Source of the DNA: Modicisalibacter xianhensis
Lineage (GTDB): Bacteria; Pseudomonadota; Gammaproteobacteria; Pseudomonadales; Halomonadaceae
Assembly: GCF_900113605.1 (NCBI RefSeq)
Contig: NZ_FOPY01000001.1
Coordinates: 131,669 to 195,668 of the forward strand
Reading direction: 5' to 3'
Length of the DNA: 64,000 nt
Positions within the stretch are counted from its first letter, which is position 1. Each line of letters begins with the position of its first letter. The translations under genes were made by a program, and so were the position numbers. Below the pieces are notes generated by a model. The model saw only the letters and a list, made by a program, of their open reading frames with translations, did no database searches and was not told the origin of the DNA. Of this stretch, positions 12,668-32,260 are shown piece after piece.

Positions 12668-12806
12668 GCTCTGTCTGAAAAATCGGCGAGCGATAGCCAG
12701 ACAAGGCAAAAATTGACGAAAGAGCGGTGTTTACGTGGGTAAATGAGCATCTTGAGTCGGTTTTTAACGCCGTATGGTTGAGTGCAGACATTTTTTCAGA
12801 CAGAGC
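12668..12806 (+). repeat. Structured intergenic repeat, copy A, with 15-bp terminal inverted repeats
   Basis: A 139-bp element between nfeD and the slipin gene. Its ends are a perfect 15-bp inverted repeat, GCTCTGTCTGAAAAA (12668-12682) and its complement (12792-12806). Inside, AAAAATTGAC (12708-12717) pairs with GTCGGTTTTT (12756-12765) with two U-G pairs, AGCCA pairs with TGGTT, and an apical hairpin TTTAC-N4-GTAAA is followed by ATGAGCA. Copies B (32141-32260) and C (27030-27143) share the same layout. The G-U pairs hold only when this strand is read as RNA, hence the + orientation. Confidence 0.75.
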
Positions 12807-12820
12807 GTAGGTGAGACGCA

Positions 12821-14248
12821 TCAGGGAGACTCGCCAGGGGCAAACGTCGCATCGAGTGGCACGACCTCGAGGGTCAACCCATCGACGGCGACGACCTTGA
12901 GATGTTGGCCTTTTTCCACCGGCTGGCGGCTGCGTGCATTCCAGCGCTCGCCACCCAGGCGTACATGGCCACTGGTGGTGAAGTTCTCAAGCGCCACCGC
13001 CTCGGCGCCCAGCAACTCGTCATGCCCGGTACGCGGGCGCTTGCGACGCATCCTCACGAAGCCAATCACCGCCCAGAGCATGAACCCCGAGGCCACCAGG
13101 GCCACTCCCCCGATCAAGGGAACCGATACCGCCATGTTGCGATCGTCCATCAGGATCACCGACCCCACCACGAACGCCACGATGCCGCCGATACCCAGAA
13201 TGCCGAAACTCGGCATTAGGGCTTCGCCAACGATCAACCCCAGGCCCAGCAGCACCAGTGCCAGCCCGGCATAGTTGACCGGCAGCACCTGGAAGGCGAA
13301 CAGCGCCAACAGCAGGCTGATGGTGCCGATGACCCCTGGTACCATGCCGCCGGGATTGATCAGCTCGAACAGCAGGCCGTAGAAGCCGACGATCATCAGC
13401 AGGTAGGCAACGTTGGGGTCGGCGATGATCGCCAGCAATTCAGTGCGCCAGTCGGGCTCGATACGCTCGAGGGCTAGCCCCGCGGTATCCAGGGTCAGCG
13501 TCCCGTCGCGCATGACTACCTCTCGACCATCGATCTGCACCAGCAGGTCCTCGATGTCGGTCGCCACCACGTCGGTCACGTTCTGCTCCAGTGCCTCGCG
13601 GGCGGTGAGATTCACCGCCTCGCGAACGGCGCGCTCGGCCCAATCAGCATTGCGCCCGTGGCGCTCGGCCAGACTGCGGATATAGGCCACGGCGTCCTCG
13701 AGCACCTTGCGCTCCATGGCCGTATCGCCTCGGCGCGGCTCGCTGCTCTCCGGATTTCCGTCACGCCCCTGCTCGGGCGGCTCTTGCCTGTCCGGGCGCT
13801 CGTCGCCACCGCCAGGCAGGCCACTACCACCGATACTGACCGGCGTTGCCGAGCCCAGGTGAGTGGCCGGCGCCATGGCCGCTACATGGCTAGCCATCAA
13901 GAGATAGGTGCCGGCACTTGCGGCACGAGCGCCCTGCGGCGCGACATACACCACCACAGGCACCTCGGACGCCAGCATGGCCCCGATCATGTCGCGCATG
14001 GCCGCATCCAGACCACCCGGGGTATCCAGTTGGAGGATCACGAGCTCGGCTCCCTGGCTCTCGGCCCGTTGCAATCCACGCTGGAAATAATCGCTGGTCG
14101 CCGGGCTGATGCTGCCGTCGATGGTCATGACCAGCGCAGTCTGACGCGACTCCTGCGCGCCAGCCACCCAGGCCAGCAATGCCCCGCAACACAACGAGAC
14201 CATCCAGACGACGCAACGCAAGGCGCTCGAGGCGCGGAGGGAATTCAT
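12821..14248 (-). CDS. NfeD family membrane-bound serine protease (long NfeD, ClpP-class)
   Basis: 475 residues. GGGAGG precedes a GTG (14251) and an ATG (14248). A signal peptide (cleavage near AGAQ) leads to a ClpP/crotonase-like protease domain with TPGG (about residue 78) and a Ser-Lys dyad region (ASAGTYLLMASH, about residues 107-118). An acidic, proline-rich insert of about 45 residues follows, then four membrane helices (about 280-405) and a C-terminal OB-fold NfeD domain (LGAEAVALENF...). Known NfeD proteases cleave the C-terminus of the partner stomatin, encoded immediately downstream here. The insert rich in Gly, Asp, Glu, Arg and Pro within the protease half is longer than usual. 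Confidence 0.92.
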   Translation of the reverse strand: MNSLRASSALRCVVWMVSLCCGALLAWVAGAQESRQTALVMTIDGSISPATSDYFQRGLQRAESQGAELVILQLDTPGGLDAAMRDMIGAMLASEVPVVVYVAPQGARAASAGTYLLMASHVAAMAPATHLGSATPVSIGGSGLPGGGDERPDRQEPPEQGRDGNPESSEPRRGDTAMERKVLEDAVAYIRSLAERHGRNADWAERAVREAVNLTAREALEQNVTDVVATDIEDLLVQIDGREVVMRDGTLTLDTAGLALERIEPDWRTELLAIIADPNVAYLLMIVGFYGLLFELINPGGMVPGVIGTISLLLALFAFQVLPVNYAGLALVLLGLGLIVGEALMPSFGILGIGGIVAFVVGSVILMDDRNMAVSVPLIGGVALVASGFMLWAVIGFVRMRRKRPRTGHDELLGAEAVALENFTTSGHVRLGGERWNARSRQPVEKGQHLKVVAVDGLTLEVVPLDATFAPGESP

Positions 14249-14432
14249 CACGGCGACCTCCCGGCCAGGAAAAGCCCGGTCCTGCTACCACTGTAGCCCA
14301 CTCCAGGGCACCGCCGTGTGGTGTCAGATCAAGTCATCTAAGGCAAGTCCCAGAAAAATCAGCGCCGGGTGGCTTGAGCAATCGTCCAATCTGCGGCGAT
14401 CATCAAAAATCGTCAATTCGTTTAGGCCTCGC

Positions 14433-15131
14433 ATGAGCAAGGAAAGCCAGCCAACACTCAGCATCATCATCCCCACCCTCAACGAGGCGGCGACCATCGA
14501 GTCACAGCTGTCGTCGCTGCTGGGGCTATGGGTGTGTGGCTGTGAAATCATCGTGGTCGACGGCGGCAGCACCGACGATACGCCTCGGCTCGCCGCGCCC
14601 TATGCCAACCAGGTGATCGCCAGCCGGCCCGGGCGAGCCACGCAGATGAATGCCGGCGCCCGCGCCAGCCGCAGTGAGCGGTTGCTATTTCTGCATGCCG
14701 ATACACGTCTGCCCCGGCGTGCCGACAAACTGGTCCTGGCAGCCCTGCGCAATGGCCAGCGCTGGGGACGCTTCGACATTCGTCTGGAGGGCCACTCGTC
14801 CTGGCTACCGGTAGTGTCACTCGCCATGAACCTACGCTCACGATTGACCGGCATCGCCACCGGCGATCAAGCGCTGTTCATGACGCGTGACGCTTTCGAG
14901 GCGGTCGGCGGCTTTCCGGAGCAACCCCTGATGGAAGATATCGAACTCTGTCGACGCCTGAAGCAGCTTTCGCCGCCCGCCTGCCTGCGCGAGCGAGTTT
15001 GCAGTTCGGGGCGGCGTTGGGACTGCCAGGGAGGGTGGCGAACGATCGTTCAGATGTGGCGATTGCGCTATCGCTACTGGCGAGGCACCGACAGCCAAAC
15101 CCTCGCGAAGGAATATCATGACGTCCGCTGA
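14433..15131 (+). CDS. TIGR04283-type glycosyltransferase (rSAM/selenodomain-associated transferase 2)
   Basis: 232 residues, GT2 fold. Motifs visible are SIIIPTLNEA (residues 9-18), the DGGSTDDT nucleotide-sugar motif (about 44), FLHADTRLP (DxD-like, about 88-96) and the acceptor-site region GGFPEQPLMEDIELCRRL (ED about residue 167). This matches the family called transferase 2, rSAM/selenodomain-associated, often labelled an arsenosugar biosynthesis glycosyltransferase. Its stop overlaps the next gene by 14 bases; the partner (transferase 1) almost always occurs with it. ArsS, the usual radical SAM partner, is not seen here. Confidence 0.85.
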   Translation: MSKESQPTLSIIIPTLNEAATIESQLSSLLGLWVCGCEIIVVDGGSTDDTPRLAAPYANQVIASRPGRATQMNAGARASRSERLLFLHADTRLPRRADKLVLAALRNGQRWGRFDIRLEGHSSWLPVVSLAMNLRSRLTGIATGDQALFMTRDAFEAVGGFPEQPLMEDIELCRRLKQLSPPACLRERVCSSGRRWDCQGGWRTIVQMWRLRYRYWRGTDSQTLAKEYHDVR

Positions 15132-15753
15132 TACCACATTTCCCCTGGCGATACTCGCCAAGGCGCCTATCCCCGGCCAGGCCAAGACACGCCTGATACC
15201 GCAACTGGGTGCCGAGGGGGCGGCCGCGCTACACCGCCGGCTGGTCTGGCAAACGCTGGAAACCGCCGTGGTAGCCACCAAGCCGGAAGCCATCACGCTA
15301 TGGACCTCCCTGGCCCACCCCGGCTCACCGGACTACGCCTTTTTCGCGACCTGCCGCGAGCGCTTTGGCATCCAGCTCCGCGAGCAGCCAGTCGGCGATC
15401 TGGGCTGGCGCATGCATACCGCACTCGCCACCATGCCGGGGCCCGGCATGGTGATTGGCTGCGACTGCCCGATGCTGACGCCCGACCTGCTGAAGCGCTG
15501 CTACGCCGCATTGCAGTCGGCGGACTGTGTCTTCCTGCCTGCCGAGGATGGTGGCTATGCCCTGGTCGGCGTGTGCCGTGCCGAGCCTTTTCTGTTCGAC
15601 GACATCGACTGGGGCAGCGACCGGGTCATGCGACAGAGCCAGGAGCGCATCGAGGCCCTCGGCTGGCGCAGTGCCTGCCCTGCCATGGTCTGGGATATCG
15701 ACCGTCCCGAGGACCTGATACGCTGGCAGTCTTGGCAGCAAGTTCCCACCTGA
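15118..15753 (+). CDS. TIGR04282-type transferase (DUF2064; rSAM/selenodomain-associated transferase 1)
   Basis: 211 residues with a nucleotidyltransferase-like fold. The N-terminal PLAILAKAPIPGQAKTRL (residues 8-25) resembles the nucleotide-binding loop of MobA/CofC-type enzymes; IGCDCPMLTPD (about 113) and PAEDGGYALVG (about 141) are the DUF2064 signatures. It starts inside the 3' end of the preceding glycosyltransferase gene and presumably supplies or uses a nucleotide-activated intermediate in the same pathway. The product is unknown; the family is linked by genome context to arsenosugar or selenium genes. Confidence 0.85.
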   Translation: MTSADTTFPLAILAKAPIPGQAKTRLIPQLGAEGAAALHRRLVWQTLETAVVATKPEAITLWTSLAHPGSPDYAFFATCRERFGIQLREQPVGDLGWRMHTALATMPGPGMVIGCDCPMLTPDLLKRCYAALQSADCVFLPAEDGGYALVGVCRAEPFLFDDIDWGSDRVMRQSQERIEALGWRSACPAMVWDIDRPEDLIRWQSWQQVPT

Positions 15754-15757
15754 GCGG

Positions 15758-16246
15758 TCACTTGCCCGCCGCCTCGCGCGCCACCTCACCCAACATGCCG
15801 GCCATCTCGTCGAGCGGCAAGTCACAGTCCCGCAGGCCATGGCGTTCGGCCAGGTAAGCCGGTGAATTCCACTCGATGCGCGTCCCGTCATTGACCTTGC
15901 GAACCACCATCTTCTGGGGCAGATCGAGAGCCACACTTCCCTGGCACTGCATCATCGCCGTGCCGACATTGGGATTGCCGAAGATCACGGTCAACGTAGG
16001 CGGTAGTTCTTGCCCGGCATCGACAGCCCCTTGGGTATGATCGATGACCGTGAACAGCTTCAGATCACGCGCCTCAAGCGCCTTGCGCAGCTTGGCCTCG
16101 ACCTCGTTGACCGACTCCTGACTGGTAACATGCTTGATCCCCGGAAAGGGATCTTCAGCCGTTGCTGACTGGGCAAGGCCCAGCGTGAGGATCAACAGCA
16201 GGATGCTGAACGTTGTGCAGCGACGGGCTGGGATACGTAGTGTCAT
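15758..16246 (-). CDS. DUF302 domain periplasmic protein
   Basis: 162 residues with a cleavable signal peptide (basic MTLRIPARR, hydrophobic core, cleavage after SATAE). The mature part is a DUF302 domain: VEAKLRKALEARDLKLFTVIDH, LTVIFGNPNVGTAMM, and VALDLPQKMVV, which are its characteristic blocks. DUF302 proteins are small, often periplasmic and of unknown role, and some are linked to metal or redox stress. GGGAG precedes the ATG. It ends five bases after the convergent DUF2064 gene and shares strand with the glutamate dehydrogenase gene 32 bp upstream. Confidence 0.88.
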   Translation of the reverse strand: MTLRIPARRCTTFSILLLILTLGLAQSATAEDPFPGIKHVTSQESVNEVEAKLRKALEARDLKLFTVIDHTQGAVDAGQELPPTLTVIFGNPNVGTAMMQCQGSVALDLPQKMVVRKVNDGTRIEWNSPAYLAERHGLRDCDLPLDEMAGMLGEVAREAAGK

Positions 16247-16278
16247 GACAGGCTCTCCCTGCTTGGGCGGTCGCTGTA

Positions 16279-17580
16279 TCAGCCGGCATCGCCATTGAAG
16301 TAACGGTAAGTCCCACGCTGTGCCATTGCCTCGGCAATGCGCCCCAGACCCTGCCGATAGGCGGCAGTACGCAGCGAGACCCGCTTGTCTTCGGCCAGGT
16401 CGAAGCAGCGAGTGGCCTCACGGTCCATCCGCTCGACCAACCTGGCCTCGACCTCATCGGCGGACCAGTAATCGCCGGTACGATTCTGGACCCATTCGAA
16501 GTAACTGACGACCACCCCGCCGGCATTGGCCAGCACATCCGGCAGCACGGTGACGCCGCGCTCCTCGAGACGAGCATCGGCTGCCGACGTCACCGGGCCA
16601 TTGGCGATTTCCAGAAGGCTGTCGGCGCGCACCCGGTCGACATTGTTCTCGTCGATCTGGTTTTCCATCGCTGCCAGCACCAGCACATCGACATCGAGCG
16701 CCAGCAGATCCTCGTTGCTCATATGCTCAACGCCGGATTCCTCGCATAGCGAGGACTCGCAGTACACCATGCCCTTGAGTTCGCGGGTGGCATGCTTGTG
16801 TTCATGGATAGGATCGGGGTCTAGTCCATCACGCGACAGGATGGCGCCTTTCGAGTCCGACAGCGCCACGATACGGTAGCCGTCCTGCCGGGCCAGGCGG
16901 GCAAAATGGTAGGCGGCATTGCCGAAGCCCTGCACGGCGACGGTCATATCCTGGGGTGTCTTGCCCTGACGCTCGGCCCACAGGTTCAGCACTTGCAGCG
17001 CTCCACGCCCGGTCGCCGCCACGCGCCCTTCGGACCCGCCCAGGCCAAGCGGCTTGCCGGTAATCACCGCCGGCACCTGTCGGCGGGCGATCTGGTCGTA
17101 TTCGTCGGTCATCCAGCCCATCACGGTGGGGTTGGTATTCACATCAGGCGCGGGGATGTCGCGGTCAGGGCCGATGATGTCGTGAATGGCGCGAATGTAG
17201 CCACGAGACAACCGTTCCAGCTCGAGGCGCGACAACTGCTTGGGATCGACGCATACACCGCCCTTGGCCCCGCCGAAGGGCAGGCCGAGCACGCTGCACT
17301 TGATCGCCATCCAGAAGCTCAGCGCCGTGACGTCGTCTTCATCGACGTCGGAGTGAAAGCGAATGCCGCCCTTGGTCGGCCCACGGGTATCGTCGTATTG
17401 CACCCGCCAGCCCTGAAAGACGCGTAGCGAGCCGTCATCCATGCGTACGGGGATGCTGACACGAATGCTCAACCGGGGCTGGGCTAGACGCTGGCGCACG
17501 TCCTCGTCAGCATCGAGATCGTCATAGATGGTTTTCAGGCGCGACTGGGCATCGCCCAGGGTGGTTTCCATATCGGTCAT
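16279..17580 (-). CDS. Glu/Leu/Phe/Val-type glutamate dehydrogenase
   Basis: 433 residues, the usual size of hexameric glutamate dehydrogenase. The catalytic Lys lies in PFGGAKGGV (about residue 117); a second active-site Asp is in GPDRDIPAPDVNT; the NAD(P)-binding motif is GFGNAA (about 223). AAGGAG precedes the ATG. The enzyme interconverts glutamate and 2-oxoglutarate plus ammonia; the sequence resembles the catabolic NAD-type (RocG/GudB) family, but cofactor use is not settled by what I can see. It is flanked by DUF302 and radical SAM genes on the same strand. Confidence 0.92.
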   Translation of the reverse strand: MTDMETTLGDAQSRLKTIYDDLDADEDVRQRLAQPRLSIRVSIPVRMDDGSLRVFQGWRVQYDDTRGPTKGGIRFHSDVDEDDVTALSFWMAIKCSVLGLPFGGAKGGVCVDPKQLSRLELERLSRGYIRAIHDIIGPDRDIPAPDVNTNPTVMGWMTDEYDQIARRQVPAVITGKPLGLGGSEGRVAATGRGALQVLNLWAERQGKTPQDMTVAVQGFGNAAYHFARLARQDGYRIVALSDSKGAILSRDGLDPDPIHEHKHATRELKGMVYCESSLCEESGVEHMSNEDLLALDVDVLVLAAMENQIDENNVDRVRADSLLEIANGPVTSAADARLEERGVTVLPDVLANAGGVVVSYFEWVQNRTGDYWSADEVEARLVERMDREATRCFDLAEDKRVSLRTAAYRQGLGRIAEAMAQRGTYRYFNGDAG

Positions 17581-17625
17581 GAACTCGCTCCTTCGAGTCG
17601 ATGGTCGAACGTCCTGTCATGCCGG

Positions 17626-18591
17626 TCAGGGCGCGCTGCAACTGGCTCCGAAACGGTAGCAACTGAAACAGCGGTGATGGCGTAGCATGACACGGGTGTC
17701 GAGACTGTCACGCAGGCTATCCGCCGCATAATCGGGATCGTCATCCACTAACGTACAAGCGTAGACTTTTATGCGCCCCTGCTGCTTGACCAGCATGCGG
17801 CTGTAGCTGCACATGAAGTGCGCCCGGCTCGCCTCGGTCGGATATTTTTCCATGCACTGCTCGGTGATTTCCGGCGAGTCGCCGTCGCTGCCGGGCGTGC
17901 CAAAGTCGGGAAACGCGGTGAAGGCCAGATCCTCGGGCAGGCCTGCTCGCTTGAATATTCGTCGGAATGCCGCTTCGACCGCCTCGGCGTCTTCCTCCGG
18001 AGACTGCTGACGGGCCACCGACACGTCGAAGCCTTGCTCGTGGAGCCAACGAATGCCCTGCAACGCCTTGGCGAAACTGCCTTCTCCCCGGTCCCGGTCG
18101 TGGCGTGAGGGGTCGGGATAATCGAGACTGACCCGAAAGCGAATCGGGAACGGTTGCGAGACCAGAGGCAACAGCTGATGCGCACGCCGTAACAACGGGT
18201 CTGTGGCGTTGGTCAATACGAAGCAGGGACGCCGCTCGCTGGCATAGCGCAGGATGTCGATGAAGCCCTTGATCACGAAGGGTTCGCCACCGGTGAAGGA
18301 GAACTGCTTCACGCCCAGGTCGACGGCTTCGTCCAAAAAGGGCTGGACCTCGGCAAGGTGCAGGGCATTGAGCCGGTCGTCGCCCGGGCGGGAGCCTTCC
18401 AGACAGAAGGGGCAGGAAAGATTGCAGGCCGTGCCGGTATGCAGCCACAACTCGTCGAGGCGCTGAAAATCGATATAGCCACGGGGCGCATCGTTGCGGG
18501 TATGTGTCCATGCGCCACGTAGCGGTCCGGAAGTCGTTGCATCGACAGCAGGTATTCTGCCTTGCTCTGACGCCGAATCTGTTAATGTCAT
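17626..18591 (-). CDS. Radical SAM protein with C-terminal Cys cluster, function unassigned
   Basis: 321 residues. The start at 18591 follows GAGGGAG at six bases; the in-frame extension to 18849 overlaps the divergent gene and is rejected. The CxxxCxxC motif for the [4Fe-4S]-SAM cluster is TACNLSCPFCLEG (about residues 52-59), followed by FSFTGGEPFV (SAM contacts) and SLDYPDPSRHD. The C-terminal third has further cysteines (MCSYSRM, YACTL, CFSCYRFGASC) that could bind a second cluster, as in SPASM/twitch proteins. It is not ArsS by its motifs. It is transcribed divergently from the TVP38-reductase fusion. Confidence 0.85.
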   Translation of the reverse strand: MTLTDSASEQGRIPAVDATTSGPLRGAWTHTRNDAPRGYIDFQRLDELWLHTGTACNLSCPFCLEGSRPGDDRLNALHLAEVQPFLDEAVDLGVKQFSFTGGEPFVIKGFIDILRYASERRPCFVLTNATDPLLRRAHQLLPLVSQPFPIRFRVSLDYPDPSRHDRDRGEGSFAKALQGIRWLHEQGFDVSVARQQSPEEDAEAVEAAFRRIFKRAGLPEDLAFTAFPDFGTPGSDGDSPEITEQCMEKYPTEASRAHFMCSYSRMLVKQQGRIKVYACTLVDDDPDYAADSLRDSLDTRVMLRHHRCFSCYRFGASCSAP

Positions 18592-18726
18592 GAAAGACTC
18601 CCTCGGGTATCGGAAAACGACGATGGCCCGCACGCGGTCGCCAGGAAAGGGCGAACGCGTATAACCACTGACCAACGGCAAGGATGGCCGTTCCATTTTC
18701 ACGGATGATAAAAGGGTGGTTGTTTC

Positions 18727-20877: not shown

Positions 20878-20897
20878 TAAGCGGAGTAAGCTTCTTG

Positions 20898-20930
20898 TAT
20901 ACTGCGCGACGCGGCCGATTCGGCCGCGTC
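20898..20930 (+). promoter_or_regulatory. Candidate promoter and GC-rich hairpin before the ABC importer operon
   Basis: TGTATACT (extended -10-like, TATACT at 20898-20903) is followed by a perfect 10-bp hairpin GACGCGGCCG-ATT-CGGCCGCGTC (20908-20930). No T-run follows, so it is not a standard terminator; it would sit at the very 5' end of the importer mRNA, or could be an operator or end of the upstream transcript. Confidence 0.4.
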
Positions 20931-24012: not shown

Positions 24013-24684
24013 TCAACCGAGCCGGTCGAGCAGTTCGTCTAGATCGCTCACCGTCAGGTCCGGCTCGTCGCCCCACGGGTCGAATGGCGCTTCGGCGCTA
24101 CGCCGCACCCAGGCGGCATGCAGCCCGGCATGCTTGGCGCCGATGATGTCGAACGGATTGCTGGAAACCAGCCAGGTATCGTTGGCTGCCGCTTCGACAC
24201 GGTTGCGTAGATAGGCATAGACCGCCGGGTCCGGCTTGAAGCGCCGCACTTCCTCGACACTGACGATGTCATCGAAGTACTGCAGGATGCCTGCGCCTTC
24301 GAGAAGTTTGGACACGGCCTGTCGGCTGCCATTGGAAAACGCCACACAGCGCACCTGGCGACTTTCGGCGATGCGCGCCAGGGCATCGGCGGCATCGGGA
24401 AAGGCCGGTAGCGAGGTGTAGGTGGCCATCAGGCGATCCTTGGCGTGCTCGGAGAGTCGCGTTCCCATGGCCCGGTCAACGTACTCCAGCGCCTCGCGGG
24501 TGCACTGAGCGAAGTCGACGTAAGCCCCCATCAGGCCACGGCGAAAGGCATACTCGAGTTGCCGGTCGCGCCAGCGTTGGGAAAACGCCATCGCCTGATC
24601 GCCGACATGCTTGCCGAGTTCATCGATCACACCGTGCGTATCGATCAGCGTGCCATAGACGTCGAAGGCCAGCACTTTCTTCAT
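24013..24684 (-). CDS. HAD-family haloacid dehalogenase, type II
   Basis: 223 residues; start at 24684 supported by GGAGAG seven bases upstream (an ATG at 24699 lacks this). Motif I is AFDVYGTLID (nucleophile Asp about residue 7), motif II VAFSNGSR (about 114-120), motif III Lys in RRFKPDPAVY, motif IV SSNPFDIIGAKHAG. This order matches L-2-haloacid dehalogenases (type II), which hydrolyse 2-haloalkanoic acids; many family members act on other substrates. It is convergent to the ABC importer operon and divergent from argC. Confidence 0.9.
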   Translation of the reverse strand: MKKVLAFDVYGTLIDTHGVIDELGKHVGDQAMAFSQRWRDRQLEYAFRRGLMGAYVDFAQCTREALEYVDRAMGTRLSEHAKDRLMATYTSLPAFPDAADALARIAESRQVRCVAFSNGSRQAVSKLLEGAGILQYFDDIVSVEEVRRFKPDPAVYAYLRNRVEAAANDTWLVSSNPFDIIGAKHAGLHAAWVRRSAEAPFDPWGDEPDLTVSDLDELLDRLG

Positions 24685-24846
24685 GTCAGGGCTCTCCATC
24701 GGTAAAATGCACTAACAAACTGGACAGTTTTTCCGGCCCCGGCAAGCTTTCACTGTGACAAACCCAGTCTATCTCCGCACACTACACGTTTGCGTACACT
24801 CATTCTCAGCATGACCCGGCATCGGGGATTGATTCGAGGCACCAAG

Positions 24847-25788
24847 ATGGCATTCAAGATCTACGTGGACGGACAGGAAGGCACGACCGGCCTGCGCCTG
24901 TTCGATTATCTCAATGGCCGCGACGATATCGAGCTGCTGCGCATCGATAGCGACAAGCGCAAGGACACCCGCGAACGCGCCCGGCTGCTCAATGCCGCCG
25001 ATGTCGCTTTTCTCTGCCTGCCCGACGACGCTTCTCGCGAGGCCGTCGCGCTGCTGGAAAATCCCGACACCTGCCTGATCGATGCCAGTACCGCATTTCG
25101 TACCGCAGACGATTGGGTCTACGGTTTGCCGGAGTTGGCTCCCGGCCAGCGCGAACGCATCCAGACCAGCAAGCGCATCGCCAACCCGGGCTGCCATGCC
25201 AGCGCCTTCGTGCTGTTGACCCGCCCCCTGGTGGACGCCGGCCTGCTGCCTGCAGACTATCCGGTCTCGGCCTTTTCACTGACCGGCTACAGCGGTGGCG
25301 GCAAGAAACTGATCGCCGACTATGAAAGCGATGCCGACAACCGTTTGGCGGCACCGCGTCCTTATGCCCTGCCACTGGGCCACAAGCACCTGCCGGAAAT
25401 GCGCCTGCATGGCGGCCTGTCGTCGGCCCCGGTGTTCAATCCCATCGTCGGCCCGTTCCTTAAGGGCTTGGCCGTGACCGTACCGCTGCATGTCTCGCAT
25501 CTCGCCCCGGGTGCCAATGCCGAGGCGATCCGCGAGGCCTACCTCAAGCATTATCAGGGCGAACGCTTCATCCAGGTCATGCCACTGGACGATGCGGCCA
25601 ACCTGGACAATGGCTTCTTCGACGTTCAGGGCGCCAACGACACCAACCGGGTCGACATTTTCGTGTTCGGCGGTGCGGAGCGCCTGGCACTGGTTGCCCG
25701 ACTGGACAACCTGGGCAAGGGCGCAGCCGGTGCCGCCGTGCAGTCCATGAACATTCATCTTGGCGTGGACGAGGATACCGGCCTGTAA
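24847..25788 (+). CDS. argC: N-acetyl-gamma-glutamyl-phosphate reductase (type 2)
   Basis: 313 residues, the length of the short type 2 ArgC. The start follows GAGG at seven bases. The N-terminal binding motif is [11 protein letters not shown], the active-site Cys is in NPGCHASAF (about residue 117), and [10 protein letters not shown] and [10 protein letters not shown] are family blocks. It makes N-acetylglutamate semialdehyde from N-acetylglutamyl phosphate with NADPH in arginine synthesis. No other arg gene is nearby. Confidence 0.93.
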
Positions 25789-25876
25789 GTTGTCCTGAGT
25801 GAGAGCCTTCGTTACTTTGAAGACGAGGGTGCGCCACGGAAGGCGCGTTCAGTGAACAACAAGGCAAGGATTGCCC

Positions 25877-27025
25877 ATGGCCGATTCCAGGGATAAAGAA
25901 CGTCTTCACGTCGTGGACGCCATCAGGGCCTTGGCCCTGTTCGGCGTGCTGGTCATGAACCTGCGGGACATGTCGGGGCTGAACTTCCTGACGGCGGAAG
26001 CGCTGGCTTCACTGCAAGGGCCGGTCGACCAGGCCGTCGACTTTCTATTGCATGTGGTGTTCGACGAGAAGTTCCTGTCCTCGTTTTCGTTTCTCTTTGG
26101 CCTGAGCTTCTACTTGCTGCTCGAACGCAAGTCCGACCAGTCGGGTTTCATGGCGATGTACTTTCGTCGCCTGCTGGTCCTGGCCGGCTTCGGCCTGATC
26201 AACATCGCTTTTCTGTACTGGGCCGATATTCTGCTGGTCTATGCCGTGTTCGGCACCACGCTGGTGCTGATGGTACGCCTGCCACAATGGGTGTTGCTGG
26301 CCATTTCGACGCTATTTTTGTTCAGTGCGCCGGTGGCACTGGCCCTGGCTGGTGCCGTACGCGGCGACACACTGCAGACGCCGGAAGAGCTGGAGGCATT
26401 GCGAACATTTGGCAGCTCTGCCTACTGGCCCAACGTCGTCGAGAGCCTGAGCCTGTATTTCGGGCTCGGCAGCTCCGGCCGCCTGGTCGAGCTATGGGAC
26501 CATACCAACGTTTACGGCATGTTGCTGTTGGGATTATGGGCCGGACGCGCGCGGATTCCTCACCGTGTCGATGAGCACCGGTTGCTGTTACGCAGCGTAG
26601 CCTCCCTCTGCCTCCCGGTAGGCCTGCTGCTGACGCTGCTGTGGGAAGTGATGCCCGACACCGACCCGCTCACTACCGTCATGCGTATCGGCGCGCCGAT
26701 CCTGGCGATCGGTTACATGTCGCTGGGCGCCCTGCTGCTCAGCCGCCCCGGCGCAAAGCGCATTCGGGCCTGGCTGGCGTTTCCGGGCCGGCTGGCATTG
26801 ACCAACTACCTGGCGTACGGCCTGATCGGACAGGTGCTGCTGTATGGCTGGGGACTTGGCTGGATCGGCACTCTCGGCTCTGCCGAGATTCTGTTGCTGG
26901 CCGTCGGGATTTATGCCGTGGCGCTCGTGCTGAGCCGGCTGTGGCTGATACCGTTCAGGATGGGGCCGATGGAGTGGATGTGGCGGTGTTTGACTTACCT
27001 CCGCCCCTCTCCTTTGCGCCGTTAG
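25877..27025 (+). CDS. DUF418 (YeiB-like) membrane protein
   Basis: 382 residues; the ATG at 25877 has AAGGA upstream. About ten membrane helices; N-terminal VVDAIRALALFGVLVMNL and the C-terminal DUF418 region (NVYGMLLLGLWAGR, FPGRLALTNYL, GPMEWMWRCLTY) are diagnostic. The YeiB/DUF418 family is related to acyltransferase-3-like membrane proteins; the function is unknown. It ends just before structured repeat copy C. Confidence 0.88.
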   Translation: MADSRDKERLHVVDAIRALALFGVLVMNLRDMSGLNFLTAEALASLQGPVDQAVDFLLHVVFDEKFLSSFSFLFGLSFYLLLERKSDQSGFMAMYFRRLLVLAGFGLINIAFLYWADILLVYAVFGTTLVLMVRLPQWVLLAISTLFLFSAPVALALAGAVRGDTLQTPEELEALRTFGSSAYWPNVVESLSLYFGLGSSGRLVELWDHTNVYGMLLLGLWAGRARIPHRVDEHRLLLRSVASLCLPVGLLLTLLWEVMPDTDPLTTVMRIGAPILAIGYMSLGALLLSRPGAKRIRAWLAFPGRLALTNYLAYGLIGQVLLYGWGLGWIGTLGSAEILLLAVGIYAVALVLSRLWLIPFRMGPMEWMWRCLTYLRPSPLRR

Positions 27026-27029
27026 GCCC

Positions 27030-27143
27030 GATCTGCTGCGCGTCGGCCATACGTCGTTGAAATCCGTCTCGCCGTGCTCATTTACTCCAGTAAACTGCGC
27101 AGGCTCGACAGATTTCTCCTTGTCTGACCTAGCTCGCTAGATC
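27030..27143 (-). repeat. Structured intergenic repeat, copy C
   Basis: A 114-bp element between convergent genes. Read on the minus strand it has GATCT/AGATC ends, a stem GAAATCTGTC / GACGGATTTC (minus-strand copies of 27107-27116 and 27059-27068) with one U-G pair, a stem GGTCA/TGGCC with one U-G pair, and the apical hairpin TTTAC-N4-GTAAA followed by ATGAGCA. It shares its layout with copies A (12668) and B (32141). Confidence 0.72.
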
Positions 27144-27170
27144 GTAGGTGTAAGTGCCAAGACCACTCTT

Positions 27171-28487
27171 TCATGCTCTCGGCAGCGGTGCTGGCGAGCA
27201 GATCTCCTCGACGGCCTGTTCGCTGCCGCCCGGTAGCACGCGAGCGAAGAAGCGGCACACGTTGAGACCAGCGATGTTGCGGATGGTACGTTCGTCGAAG
27301 GGGTGGGCACGCTGACGCATCACCGCGGTCAGGATGTCGAGGTCGCTGACATCGAAGAACGGTGTGACCGAGCCGTCGTAATCCGAGCCGAAGGCGACAT
27401 GGCGACCCGGTTCCAGCCCCATTCGCTCGGCGATCTGCATGACGTGCTGCATGGCATCGGCGATATTCCAGACGCTGGGCCCTACGGCGTAGGGCCAGTA
27501 GCCGATGCCGATCACCCCGCGATGCTCGAGTACGGACTCGACCTGCTGATCGCTGAGGTTGCGTGCCGGCCGGCACGGGTCCTCGCAGCTGCCCTTGACG
27601 CCAGTATGCGAGACCATGAACGGCTCGCTGAGGATCCGTGCGGCATCGTCCATGCCCTGTTGCGAAATGTGCGCGACATCCACGGCAATACCGAGACGCT
27701 CTGCCGTCTTGAGAGCCCGTTCGCCCATCGGGGTCAGGCCATAACGCTCACAGCCCTCACCCGAGCCGGCGAGTGCGTTGTCAAACCGATGGTTGGGCGC
27801 AAATTGGCGCACCCCAAGGTCGAAAAGTTGCTGCATGTCCTCGTCGACCGCCTGCAGGTCGTCGGGGGTATTCCCGACCCAGTGGCCGCCCTCGATGCCC
27901 AGCACGGCCCCCACGACTTGCTGGCCGGCGCGGCGATCGGCCATCAGTTGTCGCAGGTCATCGACATGGCGGATCAGGCGAAGCTCGGGTCCTTCGCGCT
28001 GCCTGGAGCGCTTGATGGCAGCCTTGAGACGCTCGATCTGGTAGATGGCCCGCTCGCGGGTACTGAAGGCCGGGCGACCCTGCGATGCTGCCAGCAGGGC
28101 AGCCATGTCGACACTACCGCCGCTGACGCATTCCTCACCGTTGCGGTAGCGATCGCTGCTGCCATACGGCAACGGACTTTGGGTGACGATAGTAAAGGAC
28201 TGTAGTGCAACGTTCCCTTCCACCAGTCGTGGCAGATCGACATGCCCCCACTCGCTGCGTACCAGCAGGTCGCGATCCCACTTGAGCGTATCGACATGCA
28301 GGTCGGCGATGAACAGCGACTCGTGCAGTGACTTGTCCTCGGCTGTGGGAACAGGCGCGTCGGGATCGGCCGCAATCCGGTTCATCAAACGGTCGTAGGT
28401 TTCCGCGCCGAAGAGGCGCACGCCGCCCAGCAGTACCAGCAGGAACACCACAATGATGCCGCAGCTGATCAATATCCCTCTCAGCAT
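27171..28487 (-). CDS. Membrane dipeptidase (peptidase M19, renal dipeptidase family)
   Basis: 438 residues. One N-terminal hydrophobic segment (GILISCGIIVVFLLVLLGG) anchors or exports the protein. Zinc ligands of the M19 family appear as ADLHVDTLKWD (His-x-Asp, about residue 62), GIEGGHW (Glu, about residue 200), VAHIS and VSHTG (His). FGSDYDG is also conserved. M19 enzymes hydrolyse dipeptides, including D-residue ones. AAGGA precedes the ATG. It is the next gene downstream of eutC (82 bp), but a link to ectoine catabolism is only positional. Confidence 0.92.
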   Translation of the reverse strand: MLRGILISCGIIVVFLLVLLGGVRLFGAETYDRLMNRIAADPDAPVPTAEDKSLHESLFIADLHVDTLKWDRDLLVRSEWGHVDLPRLVEGNVALQSFTIVTQSPLPYGSSDRYRNGEECVSGGSVDMAALLAASQGRPAFSTRERAIYQIERLKAAIKRSRQREGPELRLIRHVDDLRQLMADRRAGQQVVGAVLGIEGGHWVGNTPDDLQAVDEDMQQLFDLGVRQFAPNHRFDNALAGSGEGCERYGLTPMGERALKTAERLGIAVDVAHISQQGMDDAARILSEPFMVSHTGVKGSCEDPCRPARNLSDQQVESVLEHRGVIGIGYWPYAVGPSVWNIADAMQHVMQIAERMGLEPGRHVAFGSDYDGSVTPFFDVSDLDILTAVMRQRAHPFDERTIRNIAGLNVCRFFARVLPGGSEQAVEEICSPAPLPRA

Positions 28488-28569
28488 GTCTCATCCTTGA
28501 GCACGTGTGACGGTTCATTGGGAATACACCTGAACGGCTTCAGGAGCAATCGCTATCAACAGCGCAGGG

Positions 28570-29514
28570 CTATAGTCCCAGACGACTCAGTGCATAGTTG
28601 GCAATGGCCGTATCCTGCACACCGGTCCCGGTGAGATCGCAGACGGTGATGCTGGACGGCGAGACACGCAGGCGCTGCTCATCGGCAATCACGCGGCCCA
28701 GTTCGTAGACCTTGAACGGCGGCTCGCCACCGGCATAGGCCTTGAGTTCCCCGTTGTGTTCGCTCTGGGCCCGGGTATCGCAGACGAAAGCATCGGCGCG
28801 GGTCATTACCGACTCGTCGAGCTCACGCTTCTCGGGGCTGTCCGAGCCCATCGCCGTGACATGCACCCCCTCCGGTAGATCCTGCGCGGTCAGGATCGGC
28901 TGACGGGCCGGAGTGGTAGTCACCACGATATCCGCCTCGGCGCAGGCTGCCTTGACGCTGTCATGGACACGGACCGTGAAGCCCTGGTCCTGCATGCGCT
29001 CGGCATACGCTTCGGCCTGCTCACGGCGACGCGCCCAAACGTCGAGCGTATCGACGTCCCGAATGAGTTGCAGCGCTCGCACCTGCAGTTCGGCCTGTTC
29101 ACCGGCACCGAGTACCGCCACGCGGCGGCTGTCTTCGCGAGACAGGTGCTTGGCAGCAATGGCACCGGCCAGGGCGGTACGCACCGCCGTCAGGTAGCCT
29201 TCGTCAAACAATACCGCGTCGACCAGCCCGGTCTTGGCCGAGAACACCATCATCAGACCATTGAGGCTCGGCAAGCCAAGCTTGGGGTTGTCGAAGAAGC
29301 CGGGGCTGACCTTGATCGCGAAGCGCTCGAAGCCACGGATGTGCGCCGTCTTGACGTCGACCTCGCCGTTGGACTCCTCGATGGCCATCGACAGAATGGG
29401 CGGCTGCACCACCTCGCCACGCCCCAATGCCGCAAAGCCGGCTTCGACGGTGGTCAGGGCATCGCGGTCGAGCTTGACCGCCGCTTCGATGGCATCGCGC
29501 TGATATAGCTGCAT
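28570..29514 (-). CDS. eutC: EutC-type ornithine cyclodeaminase family enzyme of hydroxyectoine use
   Basis: 314 residues, start at 29514 with GGAGAG just upstream. The NAD-binding motif is LGAGEQAELQ (about residue 133); FDEGYLTAVRTALAGAIAA and TGTGVQDTAI are ornithine cyclodeaminase/mu-crystallin blocks. Directly downstream of eutB (42 bp gap), it belongs to the EutBC pair that funnels hydroxyectoine into ectoine breakdown. Alternative reading: a generic ornithine cyclodeaminase, but the eutB-doe context makes EutC the better call. Confidence 0.88.
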   Translation of the reverse strand: MQLYQRDAIEAAVKLDRDALTTVEAGFAALGRGEVVQPPILSMAIEESNGEVDVKTAHIRGFERFAIKVSPGFFDNPKLGLPSLNGLMMVFSAKTGLVDAVLFDEGYLTAVRTALAGAIAAKHLSREDSRRVAVLGAGEQAELQVRALQLIRDVDTLDVWARRREQAEAYAERMQDQGFTVRVHDSVKAACAEADIVVTTTPARQPILTAQDLPEGVHVTAMGSDSPEKRELDESVMTRADAFVCDTRAQSEHNGELKAYAGGEPPFKVYELGRVIADEQRLRVSPSSITVCDLTGTGVQDTAIANYALSRLGL

Positions 29515-29556
29515 GACACTCTCCAATTCCGATTTGCGTGTTGAGCGAACGGCTGC

Positions 29557-30555
29557 CTACCGTCCTGCGAGCGAGCGCGCCCTGTCAAACGTAGCCAGGT
29601 CGATGCCATTGCCCGAAACGACCAATGCCACCTTCTGGCCGCGGATGTCCAGTCCGTGCTCATCGAGGGCCGCCAGGCCGACAGCGGCCGCGCCTTCGAC
29701 CAGCATTTTCTCATGTGCCAGCAGGTCGACCATGGCCCGTGCAATGGCGGGCTCCGAGACCTGGACGTGATCGTCCATGACCTCGCGCACCAGCGCAAAC
29801 GTGCAGGCATTGTCGAGTCCGATGCCGCCTCCCAGCGAATCGCCCAGGCTTTCGACTTCCTCGACATCCACCGGCTGGCCGGCCTGCAGGCTTTCCCACA
29901 TCGCCGCGCCGCGGGACAGGCTCACCCCGGTAACCTGCACCGCCGGCCGGATGGCCTTGACGGCGGCACCGATGCCACCGAGCAAACCACCACCTGACAA
30001 CCCGACGATGACCCGGTCGAGGCTCGGCTGATCCTCGAGCAGTTCAACGCCGATCGTACCCTGCCCGCTGGCGATCAGTGGATGATCGAACGGCGGAATC
30101 AGGGTCATGCCCTGCTCGTCGACCAGCCGTGCCACCTCCCCGAAGGCCTCGTCCTGGCTGCGCCCCACCCGACGTACCTCGGCACCCAGCGCCTCGATGG
30201 CCCGCACCTTGTTGGCCGGCACCAGTTCCGACAGGCAGACGATTGCCGGGACGCCCAGGCGCGCCGCCGCAAAGGCCACCGCCCGGCCATGATTGCCGGT
30301 GGACGCCGTGGTCACGCCGCGTTGCAGCGACTCGGCACCCTGCCGCTCCATCAGTGCCGCGATCATGTTGGTGGCGCCACGCAATTTGAACGCCCCGCTG
30401 GGCTGCTGATTCTCGAGCTTGAGGTAGACCTCGGCGTCGAAGCGCTCGGAGAGTGCCAGCGAACGCACCAGCGGCGTGCGCGCCACTTGTCCCTGGATTC
30501 GCGCTCGTGCCTCGTAGATCGATGCCAGCGTCACGCCGTGGGTGGGTTGGACCAT
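29557..30555 (-). CDS. eutB: Hydroxyectoine utilization dehydratase EutB (threonine dehydratase-like)
   Basis: 332 residues, fold-type II PLP enzyme. The PLP Lys is in SGAFKLRGATN (about residue 57), the substrate loop in TASTGNHGRAVA (about 86), and the phosphate-binding glycine loop GLSGGGLLGG (about 185). GGAGG precedes the ATG. EutB converts a hydroxylated intermediate of hydroxyectoine catabolism with loss of water; EutC is encoded next. A catabolic threonine dehydratase would look similar, so context decides. Confidence 0.9.
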   Translation of the reverse strand: MVQPTHGVTLASIYEARARIQGQVARTPLVRSLALSERFDAEVYLKLENQQPSGAFKLRGATNMIAALMERQGAESLQRGVTTASTGNHGRAVAFAAARLGVPAIVCLSELVPANKVRAIEALGAEVRRVGRSQDEAFGEVARLVDEQGMTLIPPFDHPLIASGQGTIGVELLEDQPSLDRVIVGLSGGGLLGGIGAAVKAIRPAVQVTGVSLSRGAAMWESLQAGQPVDVEEVESLGDSLGGGIGLDNACTFALVREVMDDHVQVSEPAIARAMVDLLAHEKMLVEGAAAVGLAALDEHGLDIRGQKVALVVSGNGIDLATFDRARSLAGR

Positions 30556-30672
30556 GGAGCCTCCAAGGCAAATAAACCTGACTCACATAAACAGTAGCGC
30601 TGCGAAAGCAGAACTTCCGCAGCGTTGTATTGCCAGTGATTTAGGGGTTGAACGCAAGCGAGCGCAGTCAGT

Positions 30673-32079
30673 TCAAGCCTTGAAGTCACCCGAGCGGACC
30701 AACTCATCGGTCACCCTATCCACTGCCCGCTTGGCACGCGCCACGATATCGTCCACCTCATCGCGGCTAACCACCAGCGGCGGCGCGAAGCCGAGGATGT
30801 CGCCGTGCGGCATGGCCCGGGCGATCAGGTTCTCTTCCAGCGCTGCGGCACTGATGCGCGGGCCGACCTTGAGTGCCGGATCGAAATGCTCGCGCCGGCG
30901 CTTGTCGGCCGAGAATTCCAGCGAGGCCAGCAAGCCGACGCCACGTACATCGCCGACTAGCGGATGCTCGGCAAAGGTAGCCTGCATCTGCTGCTGGAGG
31001 TAGGCGCCGGTTTCCGCGGCATTCTGGGTCAGGCCCTCGCGCTCGATGATGGCCAGGTTGGCCAGCGCAGCCGCAGCCCCCAGCGGATGGCCGGAGTAGG
31101 TCCAGCCATGGCCGATCGGGCCGTATTCACCGGTACCCTGCTCCAGGACACGCCATACCTTGTCACCGACAATCACGCCGGACAGTGGCTGATAAGCGCT
31201 GGTCAACCCCTTGGCCACGGTGATCAGGTCAGGCTTCATGCCGTAGAAGTGTGAGCCAAAATCGGTACCAATACGTCCGAAGCCGCAGACCACTTCATCG
31301 GCGATAAGCAGCACATCGTACTTGGCCAGTACTTGCTGGATCGCTTCCCAGTAGCCCTCCGGCGGCGGCACGATGCCGCCGGTGCCGAGCACCGGCTCGC
31401 CGATGAAGGCAGCCACGGTGTCCGGCCCTTCGGCGAGGATCATTTCCTCGAGCTTGCGTGCACAGTCCTGGGCGAACTCACGCTCGCTCATGTTGGCCTG
31501 ATCGTCACTGCGACGGTAATAGTACGGTGCCTCGGTATGGCGGATCGTCTCGATCGGCAGATCGAAATGGTCATGGAATGCCGCCAGGCCGGTCAGCGAG
31601 CCGGATGCGATGCCAGAGCCGTGATAGCCGCGGTTGCGCGAGATGACCTTCTTCTTCTGCGGCCGCCCGAGCACGTTGTTGTAATAGCGCACGATCTTGA
31701 GCTGGGTCTCGTTGGCATCGGACCCGGACATGCCGTAGTAGACCTTGGACATGCCCATGCCGGCGAGTTTGATGATCTTCTCGGAGAGTTCAACCAGCGG
31801 CTCGTTGGTGGTACCGACATAGGTATGGTAGTAGGACAGCTCCAGCGCCTGCTTGTAGATCGCCTCGGCCATCTCGGTGCGCCCGTAGCCGATATTCACG
31901 CAATACAGCCCGGCGAAGCCATCGATGAACTCGCGGCCTTCCTTGTCGACGATACGAATGCCCTGGCCGCCGCTGATTACCCGGCCCGGCGCATCGCCAT
32001 GGGCGAAGTCACGCAGGTGAGTAGACGCATGAAACGTGACCTTGCGGTCGCGATCGATCAAATCCTGATGGGCGCTCAC
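30673..32079 (-). CDS. doeD: L-2,4-diaminobutyrate transaminase DoeD (class III aminotransferase)
   Basis: 468 residues, class III PLP transaminase. The PLP Lys is in VAKGLTSAYQPLSG; GMSGSDANETQLK and RGYHGSGIASGSLTG are cofactor-binding blocks; IADEVVCGFGR precedes the Lys. The start is a GTG with AAGGAGG five bases upstream. In ectoine catabolism the enzyme transfers the 4-amino group of diaminobutyrate to pyruvate, yielding aspartate semialdehyde for DoeC, encoded upstream. Structured repeat copy B separates doeC and doeD. Confidence 0.92.
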   Translation of the reverse strand: MSAHQDLIDRDRKVTFHASTHLRDFAHGDAPGRVISGGQGIRIVDKEGREFIDGFAGLYCVNIGYGRTEMAEAIYKQALELSYYHTYVGTTNEPLVELSEKIIKLAGMGMSKVYYGMSGSDANETQLKIVRYYNNVLGRPQKKKVISRNRGYHGSGIASGSLTGLAAFHDHFDLPIETIRHTEAPYYYRRSDDQANMSEREFAQDCARKLEEMILAEGPDTVAAFIGEPVLGTGGIVPPPEGYWEAIQQVLAKYDVLLIADEVVCGFGRIGTDFGSHFYGMKPDLITVAKGLTSAYQPLSGVIVGDKVWRVLEQGTGEYGPIGHGWTYSGHPLGAAAALANLAIIEREGLTQNAAETGAYLQQQMQATFAEHPLVGDVRGVGLLASLEFSADKRRREHFDPALKVGPRISAAALEENLIARAMPHGDILGFAPPLVVSRDEVDDIVARAKRAVDRVTDELVRSGDFKA

Positions 32080-32140
32080 AGCAGCCTCCTTGATGTTTTA
32101 TTGCGATATAGCTTTTGATTTTTGAGTACAGATCACTGCA

Positions 32141-32260
32141 GGAGCTCTGCGAGCGAAGGCCAGGCAAGGCGGACTTCGACGAAAACAGCGGAGTTTACTG
32201 TTGTAAATGAGCATGTTTAAGTCGAAGTCCAACACAGCATGGCCGAGCGCAGCTAGCTCC
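32141..32260 (+). repeat. Structured intergenic repeat, copy B
   Basis: A 120-bp element in the gap between doeC and doeD. Ends are GGAGCT (32141-32146) and AGCTCC (32255-32260). A perfect 10-bp stem GGACTTCGAC (32171-32180) / GTCGAAGTCC (32221-32230) replaces the A-U-rich stem of copy A; GGCCA (32158) pairs with TGGCC (32240); the apical hairpin TTTAC-N4-GTAAA (32194-32207) is followed by ATGAGCA as in the other copies. Confidence 0.75.

What the first reader, a model, noticed from the sequence alone, without database searches (positions are those of the whole stretch)
12668..32260. Three-copy family of intergenic elements whose stems co-vary: a repeated structured RNA
Elements at 12668-12806 (+), 27030-27143 (-) and 32141-32260 (+) share CAGRCAAGG, TTTAC-N4-GTAAA, ATGAGCA and TATGG/CATGG blocks in the same order and spacing. 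The 10-bp middle stem is AAAAATTGAC/GTCGGTTTTT, GAAATCTGTC/GACGGATTTC and GGACTTCGAC/GTCGAAGTCC: almost all positions differ between copies yet all pair, including G-U pairs that make sense only on one strand. A second stem (AGCCA/TGGTT, GGTCA/TGGCC, GGCCA/TGGCC) also co-varies. This is the mark of selection on RNA structure or a mobile hairpin family.
Basis: partly seen in the sequence, partly recalled or inferred. Interest (0 to 1): 0.82.

Follow-up and report, generated by a model that had tools for sequence, protein, structure and literature searches.

The report
Mobile DNA hairpin with interchangeable ends
The three look-alike stretches belong to a large, apparently undescribed family of about 145-letter jumping hairpins found in many bacteria, whose folded core is kept while its ends match different transposons, which makes it a good test case for whether a piece of mobile DNA can be selected for its folded shape.

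Summary
The three elements belong to a family with 26 places in the window's genome, present in 30 of 38 genomes searched, its own included, and in at least 113 of 274 genomes of the class. It also occurs in ruminant Alistipes MAGs of another phylum. Rfam has no match. Covariation is strong, internal-loop bases are more conserved than stems, and the fold favours one strand. The elements move: five clean empty sites, and site 1 unoccupied in 13 of 13 congeners. The outer stem is a terminal inverted repeat of several types. B ends give 4-bp and C ends 3-bp target duplications; C ends match a decayed IS5-family insertion sequence in the genus. Type A (window copy 1) shows no detectable duplication, and no partner was found. 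Best reading: a MITE-like family with a conserved single-strand core on different transposon ends. Against a purely RNA reading: at one orthologous site 27 cells changed on both arms and 1 on one arm, so arm-to-arm copying may make part of the covariation. Core function is inferred; no transcripts were examined.

The parts
12668..12806 (+). copy 1, type A ends: whole element between left TTAA (12664-12667) and right GTAG (12807-12810)
   Evidence: R1 match 12671-12805, 133.9 bits; no R1 match at this place in 13 of 13 congeneric genomes
12668..12683 (+). copy 1 left arm of outer stem / terminal inverted repeat (GCTCTGTCTGAAAAAT)
   Evidence: pairs with 12790-12806
12790..12806 (+). copy 1 right arm of outer stem / terminal inverted repeat
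12695..12699 (+). copy 1 stem 1, 5' side (AGCCA), partner TGGTT at 12775-12779
12708..12717 (+). copy 1 stem 2, 5' side (AAAAATTGAC), partner GTCGGTTTTT at 12756-12765
12730..12743 (+). copy 1 apical hairpin TTTAC-N4-GTAAA, followed by TGAGCA
27030..27143 (-). copy 2 (core; R1 match 27019-27152), outer stem of no assigned type; between the M19 dipeptidase gene (27171-28487, -) and the DUF418 gene (25871-27025, +)
   Evidence: 102.6 bits; R1 matches at the orthologous place in G001 and G005, with different stems; neighbours
32141..32260 (+). copy 3 (core; R1 match 32134-32269), outer stem of no assigned type; between the aldehyde dehydrogenase gene (32267-33787, -) and the class III aminotransferase gene (30673-32079, -)
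   Evidence: 122.2 bits; R1 match at the orthologous place in 10 of 14 genomes of the genus (own included), core-deleted remnant in G001, none in G002, G009, G011; neighbours

Best explanation
The three elements are members of a large family of non-autonomous mobile hairpin elements of about 140-150 bp. SHOWN: they insert and multiply, with recent near-identical copies and clean empty sites. Each has an outer inverted repeat, and these repeats fall into several sequence types (A-F here; some old copies, such as window copies 2 and 3, fit none). Two types leave different target duplications: B 4 bp YTAR, C 3 bp, mostly TNA. C ends are those of a decayed IS5-family insertion sequence in the same genus (one mismatch at one end). 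Inside is a core of about 95 nt whose stems co-vary and whose internal-loop bases (GA/GA, GGAG/UGA, the AA of the TTTTTAAC side) are kept over the representatives from the class. INFERRED: transposases of resident insertion sequences move the element in trans through its ends (IS5-type for C, probably for B; unknown for A, the type of window copy 1, whose YTA|...|TAR flanks might fit an IS630/Tc1-like TA insertion). INFERRED: the core acts as a folded single strand of the + sense, slightly more likely RNA than DNA, recognised by something common to many hosts. Replication-associated copying between arms probably helps keep the stems perfect, while selection keeps the loops.
For: Copies. Covariation: (89 rows: 2532 Watson-Crick cells of 2961, 1789 expected). 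Loops more conserved than stems: 0.84 v 0.75, p=0.007, apical loop (0.43) left out. Strand: G-U/A-C asymmetry; + strand folds more stably in 14 of the 15 copies folded, flanks included. Mobility: empty sites in G002 for L056, L210, L211, L214, L217; site 1 without a match in 13 of 13 congeners. Outer arms pair better with their own partner than with arms of other copies, mean 10.8 v 6.0. Duplications: type C 19 of 33 v 6.5 shuffled, type B 21 of 42 v 7.2, 0 of 5000 shuffles each. Partner of C: in G001 GAGGGTGTTTACAAA(A/T) ends enclose 1.18 kb; of two open pieces one matches DDE_Tnp_1 at 1.2e-15 and the NCBI IS5 model at 8.7e-22 (77.9 bits, model cut-off 110). Five contig ends on four G012 contigs (C1 twice, C8, C9, C18) run into a repeated sequence starting with the same 16 bases. 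Second phylum.
Against: No transcription or protein-binding data. The G-U/A-C asymmetry is not corrected for relatedness. Alistipes loci were found with an exact core pattern, so identity of the apical stretch there is partly by construction; members of the class were found with R1, which favours its consensus. At site 3 only 1 of 28 departures that still pair is one-sided and the number of pair types is not raised (15 v 18.3 shuffled), which looks like arm-to-arm copying or block exchange rather than slow compensation. Type A shows no duplication at any offset tested, 3 of its 5 empty sites do not read TA, and no autonomous relative was found. The core is lost at or near GAGCG repeats in 13 remnants seen, so it is not needed for persistence at a site. 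One of the two IS pieces also weakly matches a Tc3-type HTH. An antisense bias beside genes (48 of 66; 41 of 58) and a replication-fork bias (69 of 187 co-directional) are unexplained; the antisense bias is absent in type C and named loci.
Confidence: 0.64

Rival explanations
1. Ordinary MITEs without core function: pairing is kept by template switching between the two arms during replication and by gene conversion among copies; loops are conserved only because subfamilies are young.
For: At site 3, 27 cells changed on both arms and 1 on one arm, including a U-A to A-U swap in one genome; recurrent deletions at the hairpin base suggest replication slippage there.
Against: Mismatched internal loops and the G-U pair should be corrected away or drift, yet many are among the most conserved positions and the apical ones occur in Alistipes too (found with an exact pattern, so partly by construction). 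Strand asymmetry of wobble pairs.
Confidence: 0.29
2. A host regulatory RNA, domesticated at conserved places such as the aminotransferase/aldehyde dehydrogenase gap.
For: Site 3 carries a member in 10 of 14 congeneric genomes, with pairing kept among the six that share its outer stem.
Against: At sites 1 and 3 the element is antisense to both flanking genes, so read-through would make the other strand; G001 has lost the core at site 3 and another outer-stem type occupies it in G003, G005, G007 and G012. Site 1 is unoccupied in 13 of 13 congeners, and 5 of 13 G003 copies tested have clean empty sites in G002.
Confidence: 0.12
3. A single-stranded-DNA hairpin element of the REPIN or IS200/IS605 kind, moved by a Y1 transposase.
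For: Long hairpin, one favoured strand, fork-orientation bias 118:69, no duplication seen for type A.
Against: 11 of the 30 element-bearing genomes lack a Y1_Tnp match at E<=0.001; types B and C have target duplications.
Confidence: 0.07

Closest known systems
MITEPsy1 of Pseudomonas syringae pv. phaseolicola (PMC3189936; passages read)
   Same: Short non-autonomous element; ends with TCTGAAAA next to target CTAG or YTAA, as in type A here; the paper reports mobilisation in vivo and suspects an IS5-type helper.
   Different: 100 nt; its interior has no R1 match; the paper reports a 4-nt duplication, which type A does not show.
IS5-family MITEs / ISPsy19-type ends (PMC3189936 Table 3, passage read)
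   Same: Type C ends GAGGGTGTTTACAAAA resemble ISPsy19 GAGGGTGTAGACAAAAT and match a decayed IS5-family IS in this genus; 3-bp duplication.
   Different: The core does not appear in the roughly 60-75 nt next to the ends of the IS-like sequences that were printed, R1 has no match in L465, which holds the G001 IS, and the core is shared with elements having other ends.
Bacillus cereus group repeats bcr1-bcr18 (PMC3446304, passages read)
   Same: Interspersed intergenic repeats, some MITE-like, some with conserved secondary structure and transcribed in UTRs.
   Different: Different hosts; no sequence comparison made here.
REP/REPIN with RAYT
   Same: High-copy extragenic hairpins.
   Different: Size, no consistent Y1 transposase, target duplications in types B and C.
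P. fluorescens repeat R178 (PMC2718517 Table 3, passage read)
   Same: About 101 bp with an 11-bp internal inverted repeat, intergenic, in Pseudomonas; could be the Pseudomonas branch of this family.
   Different: Sequence not available to me, so not tested.

Membership tests
MITE (non-autonomous DNA transposon derivative) | short, multi-copy, insertion polymorphism | tested here: met
   139-150 bp for most; 26 places; five empty sites
MITE (non-autonomous DNA transposon derivative) | terminal inverted repeats | tested here: met
MITE (non-autonomous DNA transposon derivative) | target-site duplication | tested here: inconclusive
   met for types B and C; type A 19 of 91 v 19.3 shuffled, although a constant TA duplication could not be seen by this test
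MITE (non-autonomous DNA transposon derivative) | autonomous relative with the same ends | tested here: inconclusive
   a decayed one found for type C; none for type A in the loci examined, which are part of the 98 pattern hits; B not searched in genomes
MITE (non-autonomous DNA transposon derivative) | no coding capacity | not tested
   no conserved reading frame was sought beyond the ORF list
REP/REPIN-RAYT or IS200/IS605 | Y1 (HUH) transposase in element-bearing genomes | tested here: not met
   no PF01797 match at E<=0.001 in 11 of 30 element-bearing genomes
MITEPsy1 | same interior sequence/structure | tested here: not met
   no R1 match in the plasmid stretch L399 that holds it
Rfam families (release 15) | match at gathering score | tested here: not met
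   0 matches in window; 0 at E<=10 for copy 1; one Alistipes copy only a 6.8-bit chance match
structured functional RNA | covariation beyond phylogeny | tested here: inconclusive
   strong against shuffles and slid partners; no phylogenetic null run
structured functional RNA | transcript with this fold | not testable with these tools
   no expression data

The most novel reading that the evidence does not exclude
The core is an independent structured parasite: a folded RNA (or single strand) that has repeatedly acquired the end sequences of different transposons, is thus carried by several different transposases in at least two phyla, and recruits a conserved host or transposon factor through its GA-rich internal loops.
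Probability: 0.25. Interest if true: 0.86.

Novelty: new variant of a known kind. Interest (0 to 1): 0.64.

Why it matters
Short mobile repeats are usually thought to be selected only for their ends. Here a core with conserved internal loops is kept while stems and ends change, across a class and into a second phylum. That makes a direct test possible of whether the fold of a mobile repeat is selected, and of how much of the covariation in hairpin repeats comes from selection rather than arm-to-arm copying, which bears on covariation-based RNA discovery in general. The family is also common enough to confuse annotation and assembly.

Tried and rejected
Y1 transposase as partner: rejected, since it does not track the element. 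A shared protein gene beside the elements: 25 largest ORF clusters printed; most with many loci have an example frame that begins in or at the element, others are orthologous neighbours; judged from coordinates, none annotated. Inverted copies of the end sequences 0.6-3.5 kb apart in the loci then held, about 2 Mb: some pairs listed, none followed up. A different target duplication for type A: offsets 2-11 and lengths 2-6, 8 and 9 tried on 89 copies, nothing. Antisense orientation as a general rule: seen in the type A-rich set (48 of 66, 41 of 58), not in type C (6 of 14), named non-Alistipes loci (17 of 32) or Alistipes (6 of 10). Solo type A ends as hidden insertion sequences: of 11 regions fetched, 3 held a full element, 1 (L498) an element cut off after its left part, and 7 were core-deleted remnants; one further solo end (L418) is an element interrupted by an IS5-like transposase frame identified by eye. 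Two-phylum spread as contamination: unlikely, because the 19 of 23 Alistipes/Rikenellaceae/Bacteroidales loci that I looked at have their own AT-rich context and mostly their own end type, but not excluded.

Literature: eight searches, including one for five motif strings (92 papers hold at least one; only 25 were listed, and none of those looks related by its title). Passages were read in PMC2718517, PMC3189936, PMC2267715, PMC3446304 and PMC10969869, abstract and passages in PMC4666352; otherwise listings only. No description of this family was seen; many subscription papers are not held and supplements could not be read. IS5-group and IS630 target preferences (YTAR, TNA, CTAG/TA) and the template-switch idea are recalled, not from a call, apart from the MITEPsy1/ISPsy19 lines of PMC3189936.

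Rows dropped before counts: L053 (opposite strand of L038) and L054; loci shorter than 3000 bases; cores longer than 170 nt, and copies 85% or more alike, when choosing the 88 representatives; the apical loop in the loop/stem comparison; 13 loci without two called neighbours and 11, 6 and 2 likewise in the CM, named and Alistipes sets; pairs of ends without a recognisable core; in the fork count the 4 G003 matches on contig C2 and the one G007 match that one search did not list. Genes for the orientation counts were called by a home-made script, not a validated caller.
Full report
What is there. Copy 1 runs 12668-12806 (+), copy 2 about 27030-27143 (-), copy 3 about 32141-32260 (+); with R1 they score 133.9, 102.6 and 122.2 bits. 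BLAST with copy 1 finds 19 places in the genome. An alignment of 15 copies gave a covariance model, R1, that finds 27 matches at E<=0.001 in the genome, one of them the reverse strand of another, hence 26 places.

Spread. R1 matches in 30 of 38 genomes, the window's own included (19-63 matches per genome in the genus, with at most 88 candidates scored per genome, so lower bounds). G017, G019 and G020 of the same family and five genomes of other families of the order have none. It matches in 113 of 274 genomes drawn over the class and 94 of 222 genera (stricter filters, 12 candidates scored, again lower bounds). All 23 match R1 at E<=0.001. With one type A copy as query, 15 plasmid records match, 13 of Pseudomonas, and no phage record. 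Eight viral-contig stretches from seven contigs hold the core pattern.

The fold. The element is one long interrupted hairpin: outer stem, stem 1, stem 2, stem 3 and an apical TTTAC/GTAAA stem. On the structure-blind alignment of 15 copies, 94.7% of cells pair (82.8% shuffled), 20 of 34 pairs have changes on both sides, and the covariation score is 0.423 (0.191 shuffled; at most 0.101 when partners are slid). On 89 rows (88 representatives chosen below 85% identity plus copy 1), 2532 of 2961 cells are Watson-Crick, against 1789 expected from column composition. Even the apical stem, nearly invariant in the first alignment, becomes TGGAC/GTCC(A/C) in G003, G005, G007 and G012 at site 3. Unpaired internal-loop positions, with the apical loop (0.43) left out, are more conserved than stem positions, 0.84 v 0.75, p=0.007. 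The GA of UGA (0.99), the AA after TTTTT (0.98-0.99) and the GC before stem 2 (0.97) stand out; the 5' GA of the tandem is 0.84-0.86. The rows were found with R1, which favours its consensus.

Which strand. One apical pair is G-U in 83 of 87 rows and G-C in 4. Without it, 132 cells are G-U and 60 A-C, where column composition predicts 309 and 249; the share of G-U among them is higher than predicted (p=2e-4, not corrected for relatedness). In 14 of the 15 copies folded, the + strand with its flanks is more stable than its complement. A folded + strand therefore seems to matter. RNA and single-stranded DNA cannot be told apart this way.

It moves. Joined flanks of 13 copies of G003 were searched in the close species G002. 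L056, L210, L211, L214 and L217 have clean empty sites. L209 and L216 are messy. L208 and L222 have core-deleted remnants in G002. L215 is occupied there, and at L218 and L220 a different member sits at the place. L221 gave only weak short matches elsewhere. Window site 1 has no R1 match in any of the 13 congeneric genomes. Near-identical copies at unrelated places in one genome, such as L137, L138 and L140, show recent multiplication.

Ends are of several kinds. Outer arms of one copy pair better with each other than with arms of other copies (mean score 10.8 v 6.0; 44 of 89 reach the 95th percentile of mixed pairs), but their sequences fall into types. Type A has NNNNTGTCTGAAAA-like ends beside YYAR on the left and CTAR/GTAR on the right; left and right 4-mers agree in 19 of 91 copies, as in shuffles (19.3), and no other offset or length tried shows a duplication. 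A constant TA duplication (YTA|element|TAR) would escape this test; 3 of the 5 empty sites do not read TA, which speaks against it. Type B (CAGGCTGTTGAAAAA) has a 4-bp YTAR duplication in 21 of 42 copies against 7.2 in shuffles, and type C (GAGGGTGTTTACAAAA) a 3-bp duplication, mostly TNA, in 19 of 33 against 6.5, both 0 of 5000 shuffles. Type E (7 copies) has 4-bp repeats in 3 of 7 (0.4 shuffled, 17 of 3000 shuffles); type D (8 copies) shows 4-bp repeats only by eye with a shifted boundary. Alistipes copies have their own ends (F), without a significant duplication (21 and 14 pairs, partly overlapping).

A partner for type C. The exact type C end pattern occurs in 14 of 38 genomes. In G001 two such ends, one with a mismatch, enclose about 1.18 kb with a decayed transposase. 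One stop-free piece matches DDE_Tnp_1 at 1.2e-15 and the NCBI IS5 model at 8.7e-22, 77.9 bits, below that model's cut-off of 110. The other piece weakly matches DUF4096, the IS5 model and a Tc3-type HTH, all below their cut-offs. R1 has no match in that locus. In G012 five contig ends on four contigs (C1 twice, C8, C9, C18) run into repeated sequence beginning with the same 16 bases, three with one interior and two with another that has an ATG nearby; a transposase was not read there. So at least type C elements have the ends of an IS5-family insertion sequence of the same genus. No such partner was found for type A.

Site 3 through time. In the gap between an aldehyde dehydrogenase and a class III aminotransferase gene, 10 of 14 genomes of the genus, own included, have an R1 match. 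G001 has a remnant in which the core is lost between GAGCG repeats; G002, G009 and G011 have no match there. Six of the ten share the outer-stem type. On these six, 97.0% of cells pair and 14 of 40 pairs have changes on both sides (27 cells), while only 1 cell is changed on one side and still paired; 7 are unpaired, 5 of them at the outermost pair; the number of pair types is not raised (15 v 18.3 shuffled). The structure is kept at one place through speciation, but the lack of intermediates suggests that one arm is copied onto the other (template switching in a hairpin, recalled mechanism) or that inner parts are exchanged between copies. Stem 2 alone does fall into two blocks among the six genomes; the swaps at alignment columns 13-124 and 16-122 lie in or next to the outer stem, where exchange with other copies is less likely.

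How I think it works. Transposases of resident insertion sequences move the element through its ends (supported by duplications and shared ends for type C; likely for B; open for A). The core is kept in the same form while ends differ, so it probably does something of its own. The conserved mismatched loops should be lost under neutral drift or arm-to-arm correction, so I take them as the binding surface of a folded + strand. Whether that is an RNA made from the element or the single strand seen in replication is open; I lean to RNA at roughly 55:45. The apical stretch occurs unchanged in Alistipes, but those loci were found with an exact pattern for it, so this shows presence in a second phylum rather than an independent measure of conservation.

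Unexplained. Elements lie against the fork direction in 118 of 187 cases over five genomes (p=4e-4; G003 24 of 37, G007 19 of 27, G029 25 of 37, G311 44 of 74, G159 6 of 12). The terminus was taken as half-way from dnaA, G003 is not closed, and one of 28 G007 matches was not listed. In the type A-rich set they are antisense to both neighbours in 48 of 66 tandem contexts (41 of 58 when counted again with a motif filter), not in type C or the named loci. Several type A copies abut stop codons, so target asymmetry may explain the antisense bias. Core-deleted remnants recur: 13 seen without a systematic search (L114, L243, L416, L417, L464, L466, L495, L499, L500, L501, L502, L503, L505), with L244 a further one joined elsewhere.

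Known or new. Rfam release 15 has no match. MITEPsy1 has similar ends and target but another interior. Literature searches found no description of this core, but coverage is limited, and the P. fluorescens repeat R178 (101 bp, internal 11-bp repeat) may be a partial earlier sighting that I could not test. I file it as a new variant of a known kind: MITE-like elements with a conserved structured core and several end types.

Noticed in passing
L114, L243, L416, L417, L464, L466, L495, L499-L503, L505: About 50-bp remnants: the two outer arms joined after loss of the core at or near GAGCG direct repeats; seen in several genomes and with both A and C ends.
   Followed up: partly
L418 (G003:C1 near 1011779): A type A element is interrupted by an insertion with an IS5-like transposase reading frame (identified by eye only).
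   Followed up: no
L267:2899-4147: In a Pseudomonas amygdali plasmid an annotated IS630-family transposase gene ends about 30 bases before a complete element whose left flank is CTAG.
   Followed up: no
L012, L014, L017, L022, L404, L270: Variants carry an extra short hairpin-like insert (GGACYGGGCTCGCRC-like) at the GA loops on the 5' or 3' side of the core.
   Followed up: no
Alistipes loci such as L316, L343, L345, L305: Many of the elements viewed sit about 10 bases after a terminator-like hairpin (GGGGATGACTAAAAAGT...CATCCCC) that resembles the element's own ends.
   Followed up: no
G003, G007, G029, G159, G311: Elements lie against the replication-fork direction in 118 of 187 cases.
   Followed up: partly
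L029, L031, L152, L056: Element ends can coincide with the stop codon of the neighbouring gene, so that the gene product seems unchanged.
   Followed up: partly
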